64,000 nt of DNA from Candidatus Peribacter sp. (lineage in GTDB: Bacteria > Patescibacteriota > Gracilibacteria > Peribacterales > Peribacteraceae). The notes under the pieces were generated by a model that was not told the origin of the DNA, did not search any database, and was given only the letters and a program-made list of their open reading frames with translations. Of the stretch, positions 34,894 to 38,264 are shown in pieces. The translations under genes and the position numbers were made by a program. The stretch's first letter is position 1, and each line of letters starts with the position of its first letter. Where the stretch lies: the NCBI GenBank assembly GCA_018652955.1, contig JABIBA010000013.1:290253-354252 (forward strand), given 5' to 3'.

Positions 34894-35175
34894 ATGCCTG
34901 TACCGCCACAACAGCTCCGAGAGCTTTATCAGCTATTTTCATCTATTAAAGATGATAAAGAGGCAAAGCTTCTTATCGAAGATTTACTAACTCCTCAAGA
35001 GGTTGCTTCGCTCGCAGAGCGCTGGCAGCTTATTCAGGAACTTAATAAAGGAACGCCACAAAGAGATATCGCCAAGAAGCTGGGTGTGAGTATTAGTAAG
35101 ATCACAAGGGGATCTCGCATGTTGCAGTACGGATCTGGTGGGTTTAAGCACTTTTTAAAGAGACTCAAGAAATAG
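34894..35175 (+). CDS. TrpR/YerC-family DNA-binding regulator
   Basis: Product of 93 aa. LLTPQEVASLAERWQLIQEL (residues 31-50) followed by the helix-turn-helix QRDIAKKLGVSISKITRGS (56-74) matches the TrpR fold. The ITRGS motif is shared with E. coli TrpR, where the neighbouring residues bind L-tryptophan. The C-terminal LQYGSGGFKHFLKRL resembles the YerC/YecD branch of the family, whose ligand is not established. Tryptophan sensing is therefore likely but not proven. It lies directly upstream of a Trp attenuator and its operon. TATACT (34882-34887) ends 6 bases before the ATG. Confidence 0.85.
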   Translation: MPVPPQQLRELYQLFSSIKDDKEAKLLIEDLLTPQEVASLAERWQLIQELNKGTPQRDIAKKLGVSISKITRGSRMLQYGSGGFKHFLKRLKK

Positions 35176-35195: not shown

Positions 35196-35225
35196 TTGAC
35201 TTCACTGTGTCGTGTGTGTAATGAT
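35196..35225 (+). promoter_or_regulatory. Promoter of the Trp-attenuated operon
   Basis: TTGACT (35196-35201), 18 bases, AATGAT (35220-35225), preceded by TG one base upstream (extended -10). A start near 35232 would place the leader-peptide ATG within about 4 bases of the 5' end. Confidence 0.65.
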
Positions 35226-35247
35226 GTATCGGTACATGAATACATCA
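35222..35247. promoter_or_regulatory. Dyad overlapping the -10 and start site, candidate TrpR-like operator
   Basis: Perfect 8-base inverted repeat TGATGTAT / ATACATCA with a 10-base spacer containing GTAC. It covers the -10 box and the transcription start, so the left arm is not in the RNA and the element must act as DNA. The adjacent TrpR-like gene is the obvious candidate regulator (inference). Confidence 0.5.
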
Positions 35248-35289
35248 CTCACTATCAAAGGGCAGAACTGGTGGAGCGCTAATAACTAG
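35236..35289 (+). CDS. Tryptophan leader peptide, 17 aa
   Basis: ATG to TAG, encoding MNTSLTIKGQNWWSANN. Two adjacent Trp codons (35269-35274) sit four codons before the stop. A transcript from the promoter upstream would be nearly leaderless on this ORF. The stop codon lies inside the second arm of the first hairpin, the arrangement of classical trp attenuators: a ribosome stalled at Trp codons covers arm 1, and one at the stop covers arm 2. Confidence 0.85.
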   Translation: MNTSLTIKGQNWWSANN

Positions 35290-35346
35290 CGCTGCACAGT
35301 CGACTTTATTTTTTATCCCCAAGACTTTGCAGCAGGGGATTTTTTT
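35275..35346 (+). promoter_or_regulatory. Ribosome-mediated Trp attenuator (pause hairpin, antiterminator, terminator)
   Basis: Pause hairpin 1:2: AGCGCT 35275-35280 with AGCGCT 35288-35293, loop of 7. Antiterminator 2:3: GCTGCA 35291-35296 with TGCAGC 35328-35333, plus AGTC 35298-35301 with GACT 35323-35326, ten pairs with a single C-T mismatch. Terminator 3:4: ATCCCC 35315-35320 with GGGGAT 35335-35340, then six T (35341-35346), ending 3 bases before the next ATG. The antiterminator uses the terminator loop, so the two cannot form together. Stalling on the Trp codons would block arm 1 and free arm 2; normal translation to the stop would block arm 2 and allow termination. Confidence 0.85.
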
Positions 35347-35349
35347 ATT

Positions 35350-36231
35350 ATGACAATTTCTACAACACCATCGGCAAATGATATTCAGTCAACATTCCGC
35401 CTTAAGGGAATTGATCCTCGTATTGGTCCACTAAAACCTTTCGATGGATCCCAGTCTGCTATTTTGCAGAAGCTTTCTCGGGATATCCACCTTGGTCAAG
35501 CCCAGTGTACAGATGTGCTTCTAACCACGGGTCTGGGACTTAGTGATAACCATGAGGTTCCATTGCGCTTGCCAGCCCTGCTTGTTCCAGGTTTTCAGGC
35601 GATGGAACGACAAAAGGCACTCGGATTTACTCCGTCGCAGTATCGTGTGTATCAGGCGACAGAGTTTATTGCAGATGCAAATGGTATCGAACTACAGAAG
35701 GCTCGTGAAGTCAGCAGTCGCATGGAGCATTTTCTACGTCGATATGTAGAAGAGCTGCATCCAGACCTAGTAGAACACGTAGAGTTTTGTTTTGAGCGTG
35801 ATCAAAATGAAACGGCATCTGATTCTATTGCTCAACTTGTAACAGAAATTTCTGATAGCACATCGCATGAGATTTTTGATCGGCTTTCTCGATGTGAATC
35901 GAGCCATAGTAATCGTAATGGACAAGCTATTCGTTATGGAGCAGCAAATGTTTTGTATAACGGTGCAGATCCAGAGAAGTACCCCTTCAAGCGCTCTACA
36001 GAGATACTCCTTCCTATTGGAGGTAAAGCAGAGCGACCATTCTTTGCACTTACAAATCAGATTGCAGCTAAGCGTGGTGCTGATGTTATTCCTATGGTTA
36101 CGCAACTTGGTTCGACACCAACGTATTATCCCGCACCTGCATCGCATGCAACGCGCAAAGACTTTGAAGCACTAGAAGCAGATGGTGCATCAGAAGAGCT
36201 ATTACAAAAGCTTAACCCCGTCACATTATGA
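35350..36231 (+). CDS. Trp-attenuated protein of unknown function, first gene of the operon
   Basis: Product of 293 aa, soluble, with no signal or membrane segment and no recognised family. Visible landmarks are TDVLLTTGLGLSDNHE (about residues 54-69), a helical region ANGIELQKAREVSSRMEHFLRRYVEEL (split about 110-136) and a conserved-looking C-terminal part (RYGAANVLYNG, then TEILLPIGGKAERPFFALTN, about 195-236). No aminoacyl-tRNA synthetase HIGH or KMSKS motif and no trp-biosynthesis signature is present. It contains no Trp residue, expected if it must be made during Trp starvation. The attenuator terminator ends 3 bases before its ATG, so its transcription depends directly on readthrough. 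Its TGA overlaps the racemase ATG (ATGA). Confidence 0.85.
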   Translation: MTISTTPSANDIQSTFRLKGIDPRIGPLKPFDGSQSAILQKLSRDIHLGQAQCTDVLLTTGLGLSDNHEVPLRLPALLVPGFQAMERQKALGFTPSQYRVYQATEFIADANGIELQKAREVSSRMEHFLRRYVEELHPDLVEHVEFCFERDQNETASDSIAQLVTEISDSTSHEIFDRLSRCESSHSNRNGQAIRYGAANVLYNGADPEKYPFKRSTEILLPIGGKAERPFFALTNQIAAKRGADVIPMVTQLGSTPTYYPAPASHATRKDFEALEADGASEELLQKLNPVTL

Positions 36232-36893
36232 AAACTCTCGGCGTCCTTGGCGGCATGGGCCCTTCTGCTTCGCTTGATTTCTACAGTCAGATGATTGATT
36301 TAAGTGGTAAGGCGAATAACGAAGGCTACCCGCATATTCTACTCAGCAATCTCCCTGTACCTGATTACATTTCTGATCGTTCTCGAGAAGAGGAGGCAGT
36401 GCTGATGGTAGAAGAAGAGTCGCGTAAGTTAGAGCTTGCCGGTGCAGATTTTCTTGTGATGACCTGCAATACCATGCATCTACATCTGCCACGCTTTCGT
36501 GAAGCGGTATCTATTCCGTTTCTTTCGATGATCGACCTAGTATGTGATGCAGTAGATGTATCTTGCATCGGAGTTCTCGGTTCACCAACGACGATCGAGA
36601 CCAACCTCTATCAAGATCCTCTTGCTCGCAGGGGAGTTACAACACTTGTTCCAGAAGCAGAGGATCAAAATCTGCTTACACAGGTCATCTTTCGGATAAT
36701 TACAGGAGAGGCAGGTGACGCAGATCGCGCTACCGTTCTTTCGATCTGTGATCATCTGGTATCCAAAGGAGCGGAGTCGATAGTACTTGGATGTACGGAA
36801 CTTCCGGTACTTCTTAGGGAAGTGGAAACTTCAGTGCCGTTTATTAGAAGTACAGACATTCTCGCAAAAGAATCCTGGAGGCTTTGCTCTTGA
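36228..36893 (+). CDS. Aspartate/glutamate/hydantoin racemase superfamily enzyme
   Basis: Product of 221 aa. The N-terminal GVLGGMGPSASLDFY, the first catalytic Cys in VMTCNTMHLH (Cys80) and the second in IVLGCTELPVLL (Cys189) are the complete two-cysteine racemase site. The family includes broad-specificity amino-acid racemases (YgeA type), aspartate racemase and hydantoin racemase; the substrate cannot be read from sequence. Its position behind a Trp attenuator raises the possibility that Trp or a Trp derivative is the substrate, but this is speculation. Translationally coupled to the preceding gene. It has the only Trp residue in the four-protein operon, near its C-terminus. Confidence 0.9.
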   Translation: MKTLGVLGGMGPSASLDFYSQMIDLSGKANNEGYPHILLSNLPVPDYISDRSREEEAVLMVEEESRKLELAGADFLVMTCNTMHLHLPRFREAVSIPFLSMIDLVCDAVDVSCIGVLGSPTTIETNLYQDPLARRGVTTLVPEAEDQNLLTQVIFRIITGEAGDADRATVLSICDHLVSKGAESIVLGCTELPVLLREVETSVPFIRSTDILAKESWRLCS

Positions 36894-36990: not shown

Positions 36991-37638
36991 ATGAACTTTG
37001 AGTTCCCCACAATGTTGAATGTGTTTCTTGGTACTCAAGAGGGCAATTTTCGTCGCCTTCTCAGCAATAAGAATGCCAATGCACTATTTGAAACTTCAGA
37101 AGAAAGGAGCGCACCGTATTGTATGGTACGTCAGTACCTCAAGATGACGAATGACAAAGGTTTTTGTCCGTTTACTAAAATGCTTGAGCTTGTTAACGCA
37201 TACTTCATTCAGATCATTAACACACTCCCAACAGAGTACGAGCTGTATGCCATAGCACAATATCAAGAAGAGATGACAGAACGCCTTGTTCAATTGCATG
37301 ATTTGAAGGAGATGATGTCTATTCCACCTATTACAACAGTAGTGGCCTTTGCTCATCCAGAGGCGCGCAAAAGATCATTCTTAGAGCTGTTGGAAAAGGT
37401 GCGAATAAACATTCGTACTTCAATGATCCCGCGAAAGCGCGCAGTTGCCATTGCGCATCCTGAGCATCCGCTTGGTGGTAATGCTCACGGTACTGACAAA
37501 AGCGAAAGAAAGGATGAACCACTCTTTATATCCCCAATTCCTCTTATGGATATGCGATATTTGCATCCTATGGATAGGAAATTTGGATACGAAGGATATG
37601 ATTTATTTCTTTTCAATCAGCTTTATCCTCCTCGATAG
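36991..37638 (+). CDS. Protein of unknown function in the Trp-attenuated cluster
   Basis: Product of 215 aa, soluble, with no Trp. A Cys-containing motif DKGFCPFTKMLELVNAYF (about residues 57-74) is reminiscent of the VCPF motif in DUF6875-type proteins found near natural-product genes; I offer this as a weak resemblance only. Two HPEH/HPEA motifs (FAHPEARKR about 124 and IAHPEHPLGG about 153) could bind a metal or phosphate. A proper Shine-Dalgarno (AAAGGAAG) precedes the ATG, unlike most genes in the window. It follows the racemase by 97 bases containing a weak CACAG/CTGTG hairpin. Confidence 0.75.
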   Translation: MNFEFPTMLNVFLGTQEGNFRRLLSNKNANALFETSEERSAPYCMVRQYLKMTNDKGFCPFTKMLELVNAYFIQIINTLPTEYELYAIAQYQEEMTERLVQLHDLKEMMSIPPITTVVAFAHPEARKRSFLELLEKVRINIRTSMIPRKRAVAIAHPEHPLGGNAHGTDKSERKDEPLFISPIPLMDMRYLHPMDRKFGYEGYDLFLFNQLYPPR

Positions 37639-37679
37639 GAGGATACTTTTTCTTTCCGATATGTTTCGGAAAGGTTTTC
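37625..37679 (+). terminator. Tandem terminator-like hairpins between operon genes
   Basis: Hairpin 1: ATCCTCC 37625-37631 with GGAGGAT 37638-37644 and a T-run at 37647-37651; it overlaps the stop codon. Hairpin 2: CTTTCCGA 37652-37659 with TCGGAAAG 37666-37673, followed by GTTTTC. The two would reduce or regulate readthrough into the cupin-like gene. Confidence 0.75.
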
Positions 37680-37684
37680 TGACT

Positions 37685-37707
37685 GTTCGTTTTATGAAAG
37701 GACGAAC
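37685..37707 (+). promoter_or_regulatory. Hairpin presenting the ribosome binding site of the cupin-like gene
   Basis: GTTCGT (37685-37690) pairs with ACGAAC (37702-37707). The AAAGG part of the Shine-Dalgarno lies in the 11-base loop, and the ATG follows 2 bases after the stem. Confidence 0.5.
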
Positions 37708-37709
37708 CA

Positions 37710-38264
37710 ATGAGTGTTATTGATTTTCTGAGGGATGCTCAACGTAAGGTATCCCGCCTTCCTTCTAATAAGAAGGACTTAGGTCTGAACCCCGTGTTTA
37801 ATAGCGAGGTTCAGGAGCTTGATGGCTTCCGAGTTGGGTTTATGTTACCACTTCTTTTTGACTCTCTATGCAAAAAGTATGGTCTCGATCCCGATTCTTC
37901 GGAAGCGATCTTGATGCAGGCAGATTGTCACACAACACCGCATGTTCATGCGGTGGGAAAAAGTGTCTTTTTGCCACTTGGAATCCAGGATGGATTCACG
38001 GAAGGGGGCGGTACCTATATGGGACCGTATACTCCTGGTAATAGTCGTTTCGATCTTGCATTCGAACCCGCTACGCCAGGGACTCCCTTTTCCATTGATC
38101 CAGGAGTGATCCATTTTTTCACTCCCGGCAGTGGATCAAGATTATCTGCTCTTGCCTTTGTTTCTCCTAGAATTAGAAAGGATGACGGTAATTTCGACAT
38201 TACCCATTTCAGCCAAGCTACTATCAGTTCTGATAGTAGTACGGCTACCATCGAAGTGGTGTAA
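37710..38264 (+). CDS. Cupin-like protein
   Basis: Product of 184 aa. The central motif CHTTPHVHAVGKSVFLPLG (about residues 73-91) followed by PFSIDPGVIHFFTPG (about 130-144) fits the two conserved cupin motifs, with three His that could bind a metal. Such single-domain cupins act as isomerases, dioxygenases or binding proteins; nothing identifies the substrate. No Trp residue. It has a Shine-Dalgarno in a hairpin loop and is preceded by two terminator-like hairpins, so its expression may be set separately from the three upstream genes. It ends the cluster before a strong terminator. Confidence 0.75.
   Translation: MSVIDFLRDAQRKVSRLPSNKKDLGLNPVFNSEVQELDGFRVGFMLPLLFDSLCKKYGLDPDSSEAILMQADCHTTPHVHAVGKSVFLPLGIQDGFTEGGGTYMGPYTPGNSRFDLAFEPATPGTPFSIDPGVIHFFTPGSGSRLSALAFVSPRIRKDDGNFDITHFSQATISSDSSTATIEVV

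What the first reader, a model, noticed from the sequence alone, without database searches (positions are those of the whole stretch)
35236..35346. Complete tryptophan attenuator in front of a non-trp operon
A 17-codon leader ORF with tandem Trp codons is followed by mutually exclusive RNA structures: 1:2 hairpin (35275-35293), a ten-pair 2:3 antiterminator (35291-35301 with 35323-35333) and a terminator with six T (35315-35346). The stop codon lies in arm 2, exactly as in enterobacterial trp leaders. Known trp attenuators control trp biosynthesis or transport genes; here the next genes have no such signature. I know of no such system described in this lineage. It implies that this organism senses charged tRNA-Trp by ribosome position.
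Basis: partly seen in the sequence, partly recalled or inferred. Interest (0 to 1): 0.95.

Follow-up and report, generated by a model that had tools for sequence, protein, structure and literature searches.

The report
Tryptophan attenuator before synthetase-like gene pair
Just ahead of an uncharacterised pair of enzyme genes, a tiny uncultured bacterium whose genome shows neither of two key tryptophan-making genes carries the full anatomy of a tryptophan-sensing RNA switch, which is predicted to turn the pair on when tryptophan runs short; Trp-codon leaders of the same kind recur upstream of the same pair in distant relatives, so these genes likely have an unrecognised role in tryptophan supply or use.

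Summary
Confirmed, and stronger than claimed. The leader (35236-35289, MNTSLTIKGQNWWSANN*), 1:2 hairpin, 10-pair antiterminator and terminator with U-run are all present. Folding predicts a clean switch: terminator probability 0.96 free, 0.00 with the ribosome stalled on the Trp codons, 0.96 at the stop codon; 0 of 500 shuffles match it. (1) A TrpR-family gene lies directly upstream, and two overlapping TrpR-like operators cover the leader start: predicted dual control, as in E. coli. (2) The lineage (Candidatus Peribacter and relatives, Patescibacteria) has such leaders before trpE (8 genomes). (3) The controlled gene (orfA) has a class Ic tRNA-synthetase fold (TyrRS/TrpRS-like) without HIGH or KMSKS, followed by an Asp/Glu-type racemase in 8 of 8 genomes. 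Trp leaders precede orfA in 6 of those 8, including two TGA-recoding genomes with tandem leaders. Neither trpE nor trpA was found in this genome. The mechanism is a known kind; the lineage, target operon and geometry (antiterminator arm inside the terminator loop) are new. orfA's chemistry is unknown: Trp salvage and a cyclodipeptide-synthase-like role are the main candidates. No experiment backs any of this yet.

The parts
34894..35175 (+). TrpR-family protein (93 aa), directly upstream of the leader; rpsO lies before it
   Evidence: Pfam Trp_repressor 83.9 bits, cut-off 27; NCBIfam TrpR 65.6 bits, just under its 67.25 cut-off, while the YerC/YecD TrpR-related model passes (44.7, cut-off 42.2)
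35196..35225 (+). predicted promoter: TTGACT, 18 nt, AATGAT with upstream TG; implies a start point about 4 nt before the leader ATG
   Evidence: consensus match only; 1 found, 0.9 expected in shuffles; TTGACT conserved in G002
35218..35235 (.). TrpR-like operator site A, GTAATGATGTATCGGTAC
   Evidence: best score in the 64 kb window for a matrix built from 10 sites of other genomes
35226..35243 (.). TrpR-like operator site B, GTATCGGTACATGAATAC, offset 8 bp from A, overlapping the leader start codon
   Evidence: sequence; exact pattern match; fourth-best matrix score, 6.8
35236..35289 (+). leader ORF MNTSLTIKGQNWWSANN*
   Evidence: orthologous MSTLLLINRLNWWSANI* in G002
35269..35274 (+). tandem Trp codons TGG TGG
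   Evidence: sequence; identical in G002
35275..35293 (+). 1:2 hairpin, 7 pairs, 5-nt loop
35291..35301 (+). 5' strand of antiterminator 2:3
35323..35333 (+). 3' strand of antiterminator 2:3, all inside the terminator loop
   Evidence: same geometry in G002
35315..35346 (+). terminator: ATCCCC / GGGGAT, then U-run
35350..36231 (+). orfA, 293 aa, class Ic synthetase fold without HIGH/KMSKS
36228..36893 (+). Asp/Glu-type racemase, overlaps the end of orfA by 4 nt; both motif cysteines present (TCNT, GCTE)
   Evidence: Pfam Asp_Glu_race 2.1e-40; NCBIfam amino acid racemase over its cut-off, CuyB below its cut-off; sequence
36991..37638 (+). orfC, uncharacterised; possible operon member, absent after the racemase in G002
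37710..38264 (+). orfD, uncharacterised; possible operon member, absent after the racemase in G002

Best explanation
The stretch 35196-35349 carries the complete anatomy of a tryptophan attenuator (a 17-codon leader with two Trp codons, a 1:2 hairpin, an antiterminator and a terminator) under two overlapping TrpR-like operators, and it is predicted to raise transcription of the orfA-racemase genes when charged tRNA-Trp, and likely free Trp, runs low. Shown by sequence and computation: all elements, the predicted structural switch, the trpR-family gene next door, leaders of the same kind before trpE in eight relatives and upstream of orfA in six genomes. Inferred: a ribosome stalled on the Trp codons covers arm 1, arm 2 then captures arm 3 (the terminator loop) before the terminator closes, and RNA polymerase reads on; a ribosome that reaches the stop codon covers arm 2 and termination follows; TrpR with bound Trp blocks the promoter. 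Also inferred: because the genome shows neither trpE nor trpA, the operon most likely serves Trp acquisition or a Trp-starvation response, with orfA (a synthetase-fold protein that has lost both catalytic signatures) and the racemase acting on Trp or a Trp derivative.
For: Switch folding 0.96/0.00/0.96 and shuffle controls. Antiterminator better than shuffles (p 0.000 to 0.034, not corrected for eight tests) in all 8 orfA leaders of 6 genomes. In transcripts ending before the terminator's 3' arm, the 5' arm plus loop is 0.46-0.98 sequestered when stalled on Trp and 0.00-0.26 at the stop codon in 17 of 17 leaders (no shuffle control, and the stop-codon state leaves less upstream sequence to pair with). 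W leader plus terminator before 7 of 30 fetched trpE loci, 0 of 30 trpS loci, and G058 besides. TrpR-family gene next to the leader and operator scores. orfA followed by the racemase in 8 of 8 genomes (Pfam run on 4 of the 8). No trpA in 7 of those 8 genomes and no trpE-family match in 6 of 8. G253 and G255 have tandem leaders with Trp codons but no TrpR match, so attenuation can stand alone.
Against: No expression data. At equilibrium the folding predicts no real switch in G059, G253, G255 and G274 (terminator 0.85-0.98 even when stalled) and a weak one in G002 (0.75 against 0.92); only the duplex and truncated-transcript tests support them. Two of eight orfA genomes (G049, G272) show no Trp leader to my eye. 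G059 has trpA, so the gene pair is not confined to genomes without it. The promoter match is no better than chance. The operator scores below its ten training sites (19.7 against 25-29), and the NCBIfam TrpR model narrowly misses its cut-off while the YerC/YecD model passes. Covariation rests on two alignable sequences, with one two-sided change. The f14 leaders were found by eye, and leader 1 of G255 has a single Trp codon. orfA shows no sequence similarity to TrpRS.
Confidence: 0.85

Rival explanations
1. orfA works like a cyclodipeptide synthase: a synthetase-fold protein that uses charged tRNAs to make a Trp-containing cyclic dipeptide, which the racemase homologue then inverts. The attenuator would be the same; only the product differs.
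For: Class Ic fold without HIGH and KMSKS; two viral cyclodipeptide synthases among weaker fold matches, best E 0.038, target TM 0.54. In the nocardioazine pathway a cyclodipeptide synthase makes cyclo-Trp-Trp and an Asp/Glu racemase homologue with two cysteines inverts it (PMC10156859, passages).
Against: The GxSxx serine of cyclodipeptide synthases (PMC2922099, section 5) sits at the matching place in only 10 of 19 rows (read by eye). TyrRS/TrpRS match better. Pfam finds no such family in 16 members. A Trp-consuming pathway switched on by Trp shortage is odd logic.
Confidence: 0.2
2. Trp salvage: the racemase and orfA convert D-Trp or a derivatised Trp taken from the host or surroundings into L-Trp.
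For: Induction on Trp shortage fits supply. No trpA in 7 of 8 orfA genomes. In G272 an AstE/AspA-type deacylase precedes orfA. In G059 a cyclase-family hydrolase follows the pair.
Against: The best solved relatives of the racemase are aspartate racemases; neighbours other than the racemase vary; I recognised no transporter directly next to the pair (an MFS-like protein, by eye, lies three genes upstream in G274).
Confidence: 0.35
3. TrpR alone regulates the operon and the leader is a relic or merely translated; the hairpin is a partial terminator.
For: Operator tops the window; G049 has an operator-like site before orfA without a recognisable leader.
Against: Antiterminator complementarity is kept with a two-sided change between G000 and G002. 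G253 and G255 have leaders and no TrpR match.
Confidence: 0.07
4. A chance short ORF in front of an ordinary terminator.
For: Short ORFs are common; with the same finder, leaders with doublets of common residues also precede trpE (Leu 7, Arg 6, Ser 5, Val 5 of 30).
Against: Trp, a rare residue, scores 7 of 30 there against 0-3 for Cys, His, Met, Phe and Tyr. The shuffle controls and the orthologous leader speak against chance.
Confidence: 0.02

Closest known systems
E. coli trp operon leader plus TrpR operator (geometry recalled, not fetched)
   Same: Short leader with tandem Trp codons, stop codon at the 1:2 hairpin, competing 2:3 and terminator, TrpR operator at the promoter with GTAC-N10-GTAC half-site spacing.
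   Different: Not before trp genes; arm 3 is the terminator loop, not its 5' stem; the operator covers the leader start codon, so the leader is predicted to be nearly leaderless; different phylum.
Actinobacterial trp and trpS attenuators (PMC1262725, abstract and passages)
   Same: Predicted classical attenuators with doubled or tripled UGG codons, including one before a tryptophanyl-tRNA synthetase gene (trpS2).
   Different: There the target is a TrpRS gene or a trp operon; here it is a synthetase-fold protein without HIGH/KMSKS, and 0 of 30 fetched trpS loci of relatives have such a leader.
Chlamydia trachomatis trpRBA (PMC7755916, listing and start of abstract)
   Same: trpR at the head of a small Trp-related operon in a genome-reduced bacterium.
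   Different: Its title names a second repressor, YtgR, as the Trp-dependent attenuator; no leader peptide with a terminator is mentioned in the text I saw; the target there is trpBA.
NozA/NozR pair, cyclodipeptide synthase plus Asp/Glu racemase homologue (PMC10156859, passages)
   Same: Class I synthetase-derived fold (for the synthase class, PMC2922099) with an Asp/Glu racemase homologue, acting on a Trp dipeptide.
   Different: No sequence similarity shown here; the serine signature is not conserved in orfA; the two Noz genes lie in separate loci.

Membership tests
ribosome-mediated trp transcription attenuator | short leader ORF with regulatory Trp codons just before the RNA switch | tested here: met
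   WW conserved in G002
ribosome-mediated trp transcription attenuator | alternative antiterminator and terminator, switched by ribosome position | tested here: met
   predicted only: 0.96/0.00/0.96, shuffles
ribosome-mediated trp transcription attenuator | readthrough rises when tRNA-Trp charging falls | not testable with these tools
   needs a reporter assay
E. coli-type trp leader geometry | arm 3 is the 5' strand of the terminator stem | tested here: not met
   arm 3 is 35323-35333, between stem strands 35315-35320 and 35335-35340
trp leader families held in Rfam | match at gathering score | tested here: not met
   only a tRNA reaches gathering in the window
TrpR regulon | TrpR-family gene and operator-like site at the promoter | tested here: met
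   Pfam passes; NCBIfam TrpR model narrowly missed, YerC/YecD passed; operator score; binding itself untested
class Ic aminoacyl-tRNA synthetase (TrpRS/TyrRS) | fold | tested here: met
class Ic aminoacyl-tRNA synthetase (TrpRS/TyrRS) | HIGH and KMSKS motifs | tested here: not met
   0 of 19 orfA rows have HxGH or KMSKS; 11 of 11 TrpRS rows have HxG[HN] and KMSKS; one orfA row has HxGN near its C-terminus
cyclodipeptide synthase | conserved GxSxx serine after strand 1 | tested here: not met
   Ser in 10 of 19 rows, read by eye
cyclodipeptide synthase | fold and charged-tRNA use | tested here: inconclusive
   weak fold matches; tRNA use untested
Asp/Glu racemase family | family profile and two motif cysteines | tested here: met
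   Pfam on 4 of 8; cysteines read in the translations (8 of 8)

The most novel reading that the evidence does not exclude
orfA founds a new family of synthetase-derived enzymes dedicated to tryptophan. It partners with a racemase, is wired to tRNA-Trp sensing in Patescibacteria across two genetic codes (with doubled attenuators in one branch), and supplies or remodels Trp by a route not yet known.
Probability: 0.45. Interest if true: 0.9.

Novelty: new variant of a known kind. Interest (0 to 1): 0.75.

Why it matters
Regulation in Patescibacteria is little mapped and most cannot be cultured (general knowledge). A switch that reads Trp supply tells from sequence alone that an unknown gene pair is tied to Trp, which is a rare functional handle. 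In searches no listed title or abstract start concerns trp attenuation or TrpR regulation in this phylum; lists were capped (20 of 173, 15 of 17, 12 of 286), and of the listed papers only PMC1262725 was opened. The near-leaderless leader ORF inside the TrpR operator and the loop-targeting antiterminator are testable variants of a textbook device. The tandem leaders in TGA-recoding genomes suggest either deep retention or repeated invention of the same control.

Tried and rejected
Rfam scan: no trp leader family at gathering. Sequence routes to orfA's function (Pfam, NCBIfam, PDB phmmer, profile against PDB, profile-profile with TrpRS) gave nothing significant; only the fold spoke. No cyclodipeptide synthase stands among the 50 PDB rows shown, which does not exclude it. 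A viral-contig scan for orfA found no relative. A phylum draw with the wider profile found, apart from G000, only 4 weak matches in 379 genomes. A genome-wide operator pattern with one mismatch is uninformative (151 hits against 157 control hits), so I make no regulon claim from it. An operator-like site followed by TGGTGG was scanned in 74 family genomes, 33 with a hit; I used only the seven trpE hits, the G002 and G059 orfA hits and the G040 hit, whose leader and next gene I looked at, and did not examine the others. For orfC and orfD, family and homologue searches gave no informative name. One DNA alignment of trpE leaders (A6) had wrong minus-strand coordinates and was dropped; the counts come. 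In one search five trpE leaders gave mixed support: terminator 21 same, 8 one-sided, 1 two-sided, 10 broken, 4 gaps; antiterminator 44, 11, 1, 11, 5. I took the protein before the distant orfA relative in G017 for an epimerase by eye; Pfam did not support it, so it is not claimed. The G051 antiterminator does not beat shuffles (p 0.196); G024, G040 and G058 were not in that shuffle test.

Full report
Setting. The window is G000:C9:290253-354252. It shares a genus with G002, whose contig matches one named Candidatus Peribacter sp. UBA6535 by length and position. Gene order is rpsO, trpR-family gene, leader, orfA, racemase, orfC, orfD, pnp (the names rpsO and pnp are my reading of the translations).

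Leader 35236-35289 encodes MNTSLTIKGQNWWSANN*. The whole leader folds with the 1:2 hairpin and the terminator (z -2.31, 6 of 200 shuffles as good); without arm 1 the antiterminator forms (z -2.52, 5 of 200). With the ribosome modelled as hiding everything up to the A-site codon plus 11 nt, the terminator probability is 0.96 free, 0.00 when stalled on the second Trp codon and 0.96 at the stop codon. Shuffling the stretch between the Trp codons and the terminator reached this amplitude in 0 of 500 cases. No shuffle of 1000 gave as good a 2:3 duplex.

Geometry. Arm 3 (35323-35333) lies between the two strands of the terminator stem, so the antiterminator captures the terminator loop. The two helices share no base; together they would form a pseudoknot whose last connector is one nucleotide across 11 pairs, which I judge impossible. 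G002 keeps this geometry. The six trpE leaders and the other orfA leaders tested instead pair with the terminator's 5' strand or with strand and loop together.

Promoter and operator. TTGACT at 35196 and AATGAT ending at 35225 are a weak promoter match. A matrix from ten sites of other genomes puts its best window score at 35218-35235 (19.7; training sites 25-29), with a second, weaker site 8 bp on at 35226-35243 (6.8, fourth). Half-sites GTAC-N10-GTAC match the E. coli trp operator spacing, and the 8-bp tandem offset is also known there (both recalled). In the nine f1 leaders printed (G000, G002, G059 and six trpE), the leader start codon lies within or at the edge of the operator, and in eight of nine (not G051) a TTG that could open a -35 box sits 36-40 nt before it, which predicts a nearly leaderless leader ORF.

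The regulator. The upstream gene passes Pfam Trp_repressor. Against NCBIfam it scores 65.6 on the TrpR model (cut-off 67.25) and 44.7 on the YerC/YecD TrpR-related model (cut-off 42.2), so I call it TrpR-family. The genome has a second copy, and 69 of the 96 genomes searched (this one included) have at least one.

Relatives, trpE. Of 96 genomes, 37 have a match to the anthranilate synthase N-terminal family, of which some may be related enzymes; 30 loci were fetched. A W(x)W leader with terminator precedes 7 of 30, all among the 15 loci of the window's own family, and 0 of 30 trpS loci. An eighth, G058, came from the pattern scan. Common residues score similarly in the same finder (Leu 7, Arg 6, Ser 5, Val 5), rare ones do not (Cys 1, His 0, Met 1, Phe 0, Tyr 3), so the count alone is not the proof. 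Seven of the eight sit behind an exact KTAC-N10-RTAC site; G024 has a site with one half degenerate (seen). When folded they switch: stalled 0.00-0.01 against 0.71-0.97 at the stop codon in seven, and 0.54 against 0.96 in G053.

Relatives, orfA. Full-length orfA occurs in 8 of 353 class genomes (15 have any match). Leaders with Trp codons and a terminator lie upstream in six: G000, G002, G059, G253 (two in tandem), G255 (two in tandem, before an extra gene that precedes orfA) and G274. Adjacent Trp codons occur in five of these eight leaders; G255 leader 1 has one Trp codon, and G255 leader 2 and G274 have two apart. G049 has an operator-like site but no leader that I can see. G272 has none that I can see, although a TrpR-family gene lies two genes upstream. 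G253, G255, G272 and G274 read TGA as a sense codon (8-16 in-frame TGA). All eight orfA leaders have an antiterminator better than shuffles (p 0.000-0.034, uncorrected). At equilibrium only G000 switches fully, G002 weakly and the other six hardly at all; in transcripts cut before the terminator's 3' arm, sequestration is high when stalled and low at the stop codon in 17 of 17 leaders (8 orfA, 8 trpE, 1 radical SAM). That test had no shuffle control, and the kinetic reading behind it is the usual one for attenuators but an inference here.

How it likely works. High Trp: TrpR closes the promoter, and transcripts that escape end at the terminator because the ribosome runs to the stop codon. Low charged tRNA-Trp: the ribosome stalls, 2:3 forms, and orfA and the racemase are made. 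Every arrow in this paragraph is inferred from anatomy. What orfA does is open. Supply or salvage of Trp fits the logic; a cyclodipeptide-like role fits the fold and the partner (NozR precedent, PMC10156859, passages) but not the serine signature (PMC2922099, section 5).

Novelty. Classical trp attenuators, even one before trpS, are known (PMC1262725, passages). I found none reported for this phylum in the searches named under why it matters, whose lists were capped. Predicted dual TrpR plus attenuator control in Patescibacteria, the orfA-racemase target and the loop-capturing geometry are new as far as these searches reach.

Noticed in passing
L118:4896-5168 (G253) and L121:3944-4222 (G255): Two tandem leaders with Trp codons, each with its own terminator, upstream of orfA (in G255 before an extra gene that precedes orfA) in TGA-recoding genomes that have no TrpR match.
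   Followed up: partly
L159:3250-3540 minus strand (G040): A Trp leader (VQRYILTQAQNRTWWLAARNPLYSWRW*) behind a TrpR-like site in front of a radical SAM/SPASM gene, in a genome without a trpE or trpA match: another unexplained target of the same control.
   Followed up: partly
L027:1209-1421 minus strand (G047), L051 (G016), L036 about 1826-2006 (G003): Longer ORFs ending in ...GTGWWGCGG* or ...TARGWS*, behind TrpR-like sites in G047 and G003; possibly long leader peptides or small Trp-regulated proteins.
   Followed up: no
L124:6692-8296 (G017): A distant, longer orfA relative (534 aa) sits among a HisRS gene, a pyruvoyl arginine decarboxylase and his genes (the last by eye), so the wider family may be tied to other amino acids.
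   Followed up: partly
L011:1523-5898 (G049): A group II decarboxylase-like gene directly before orfA, and trpS-like and chorismate-mutase/methyltransferase-like genes nearby (all my reading of the translations).
   Followed up: no
L012 (record titled uncultured proteobacterium): An orfA relative in a bin labelled proteobacterium, without a Trp leader that I could see; possible transfer or mis-binned contig.
   Followed up: no
window 36991-38264: orfC and orfD lie between the racemase and pnp here; G002 goes from the racemase straight to pnp and G003 has neither orfA nor the racemase at this spot, so it may take up cargo genes.
   Followed up: partly
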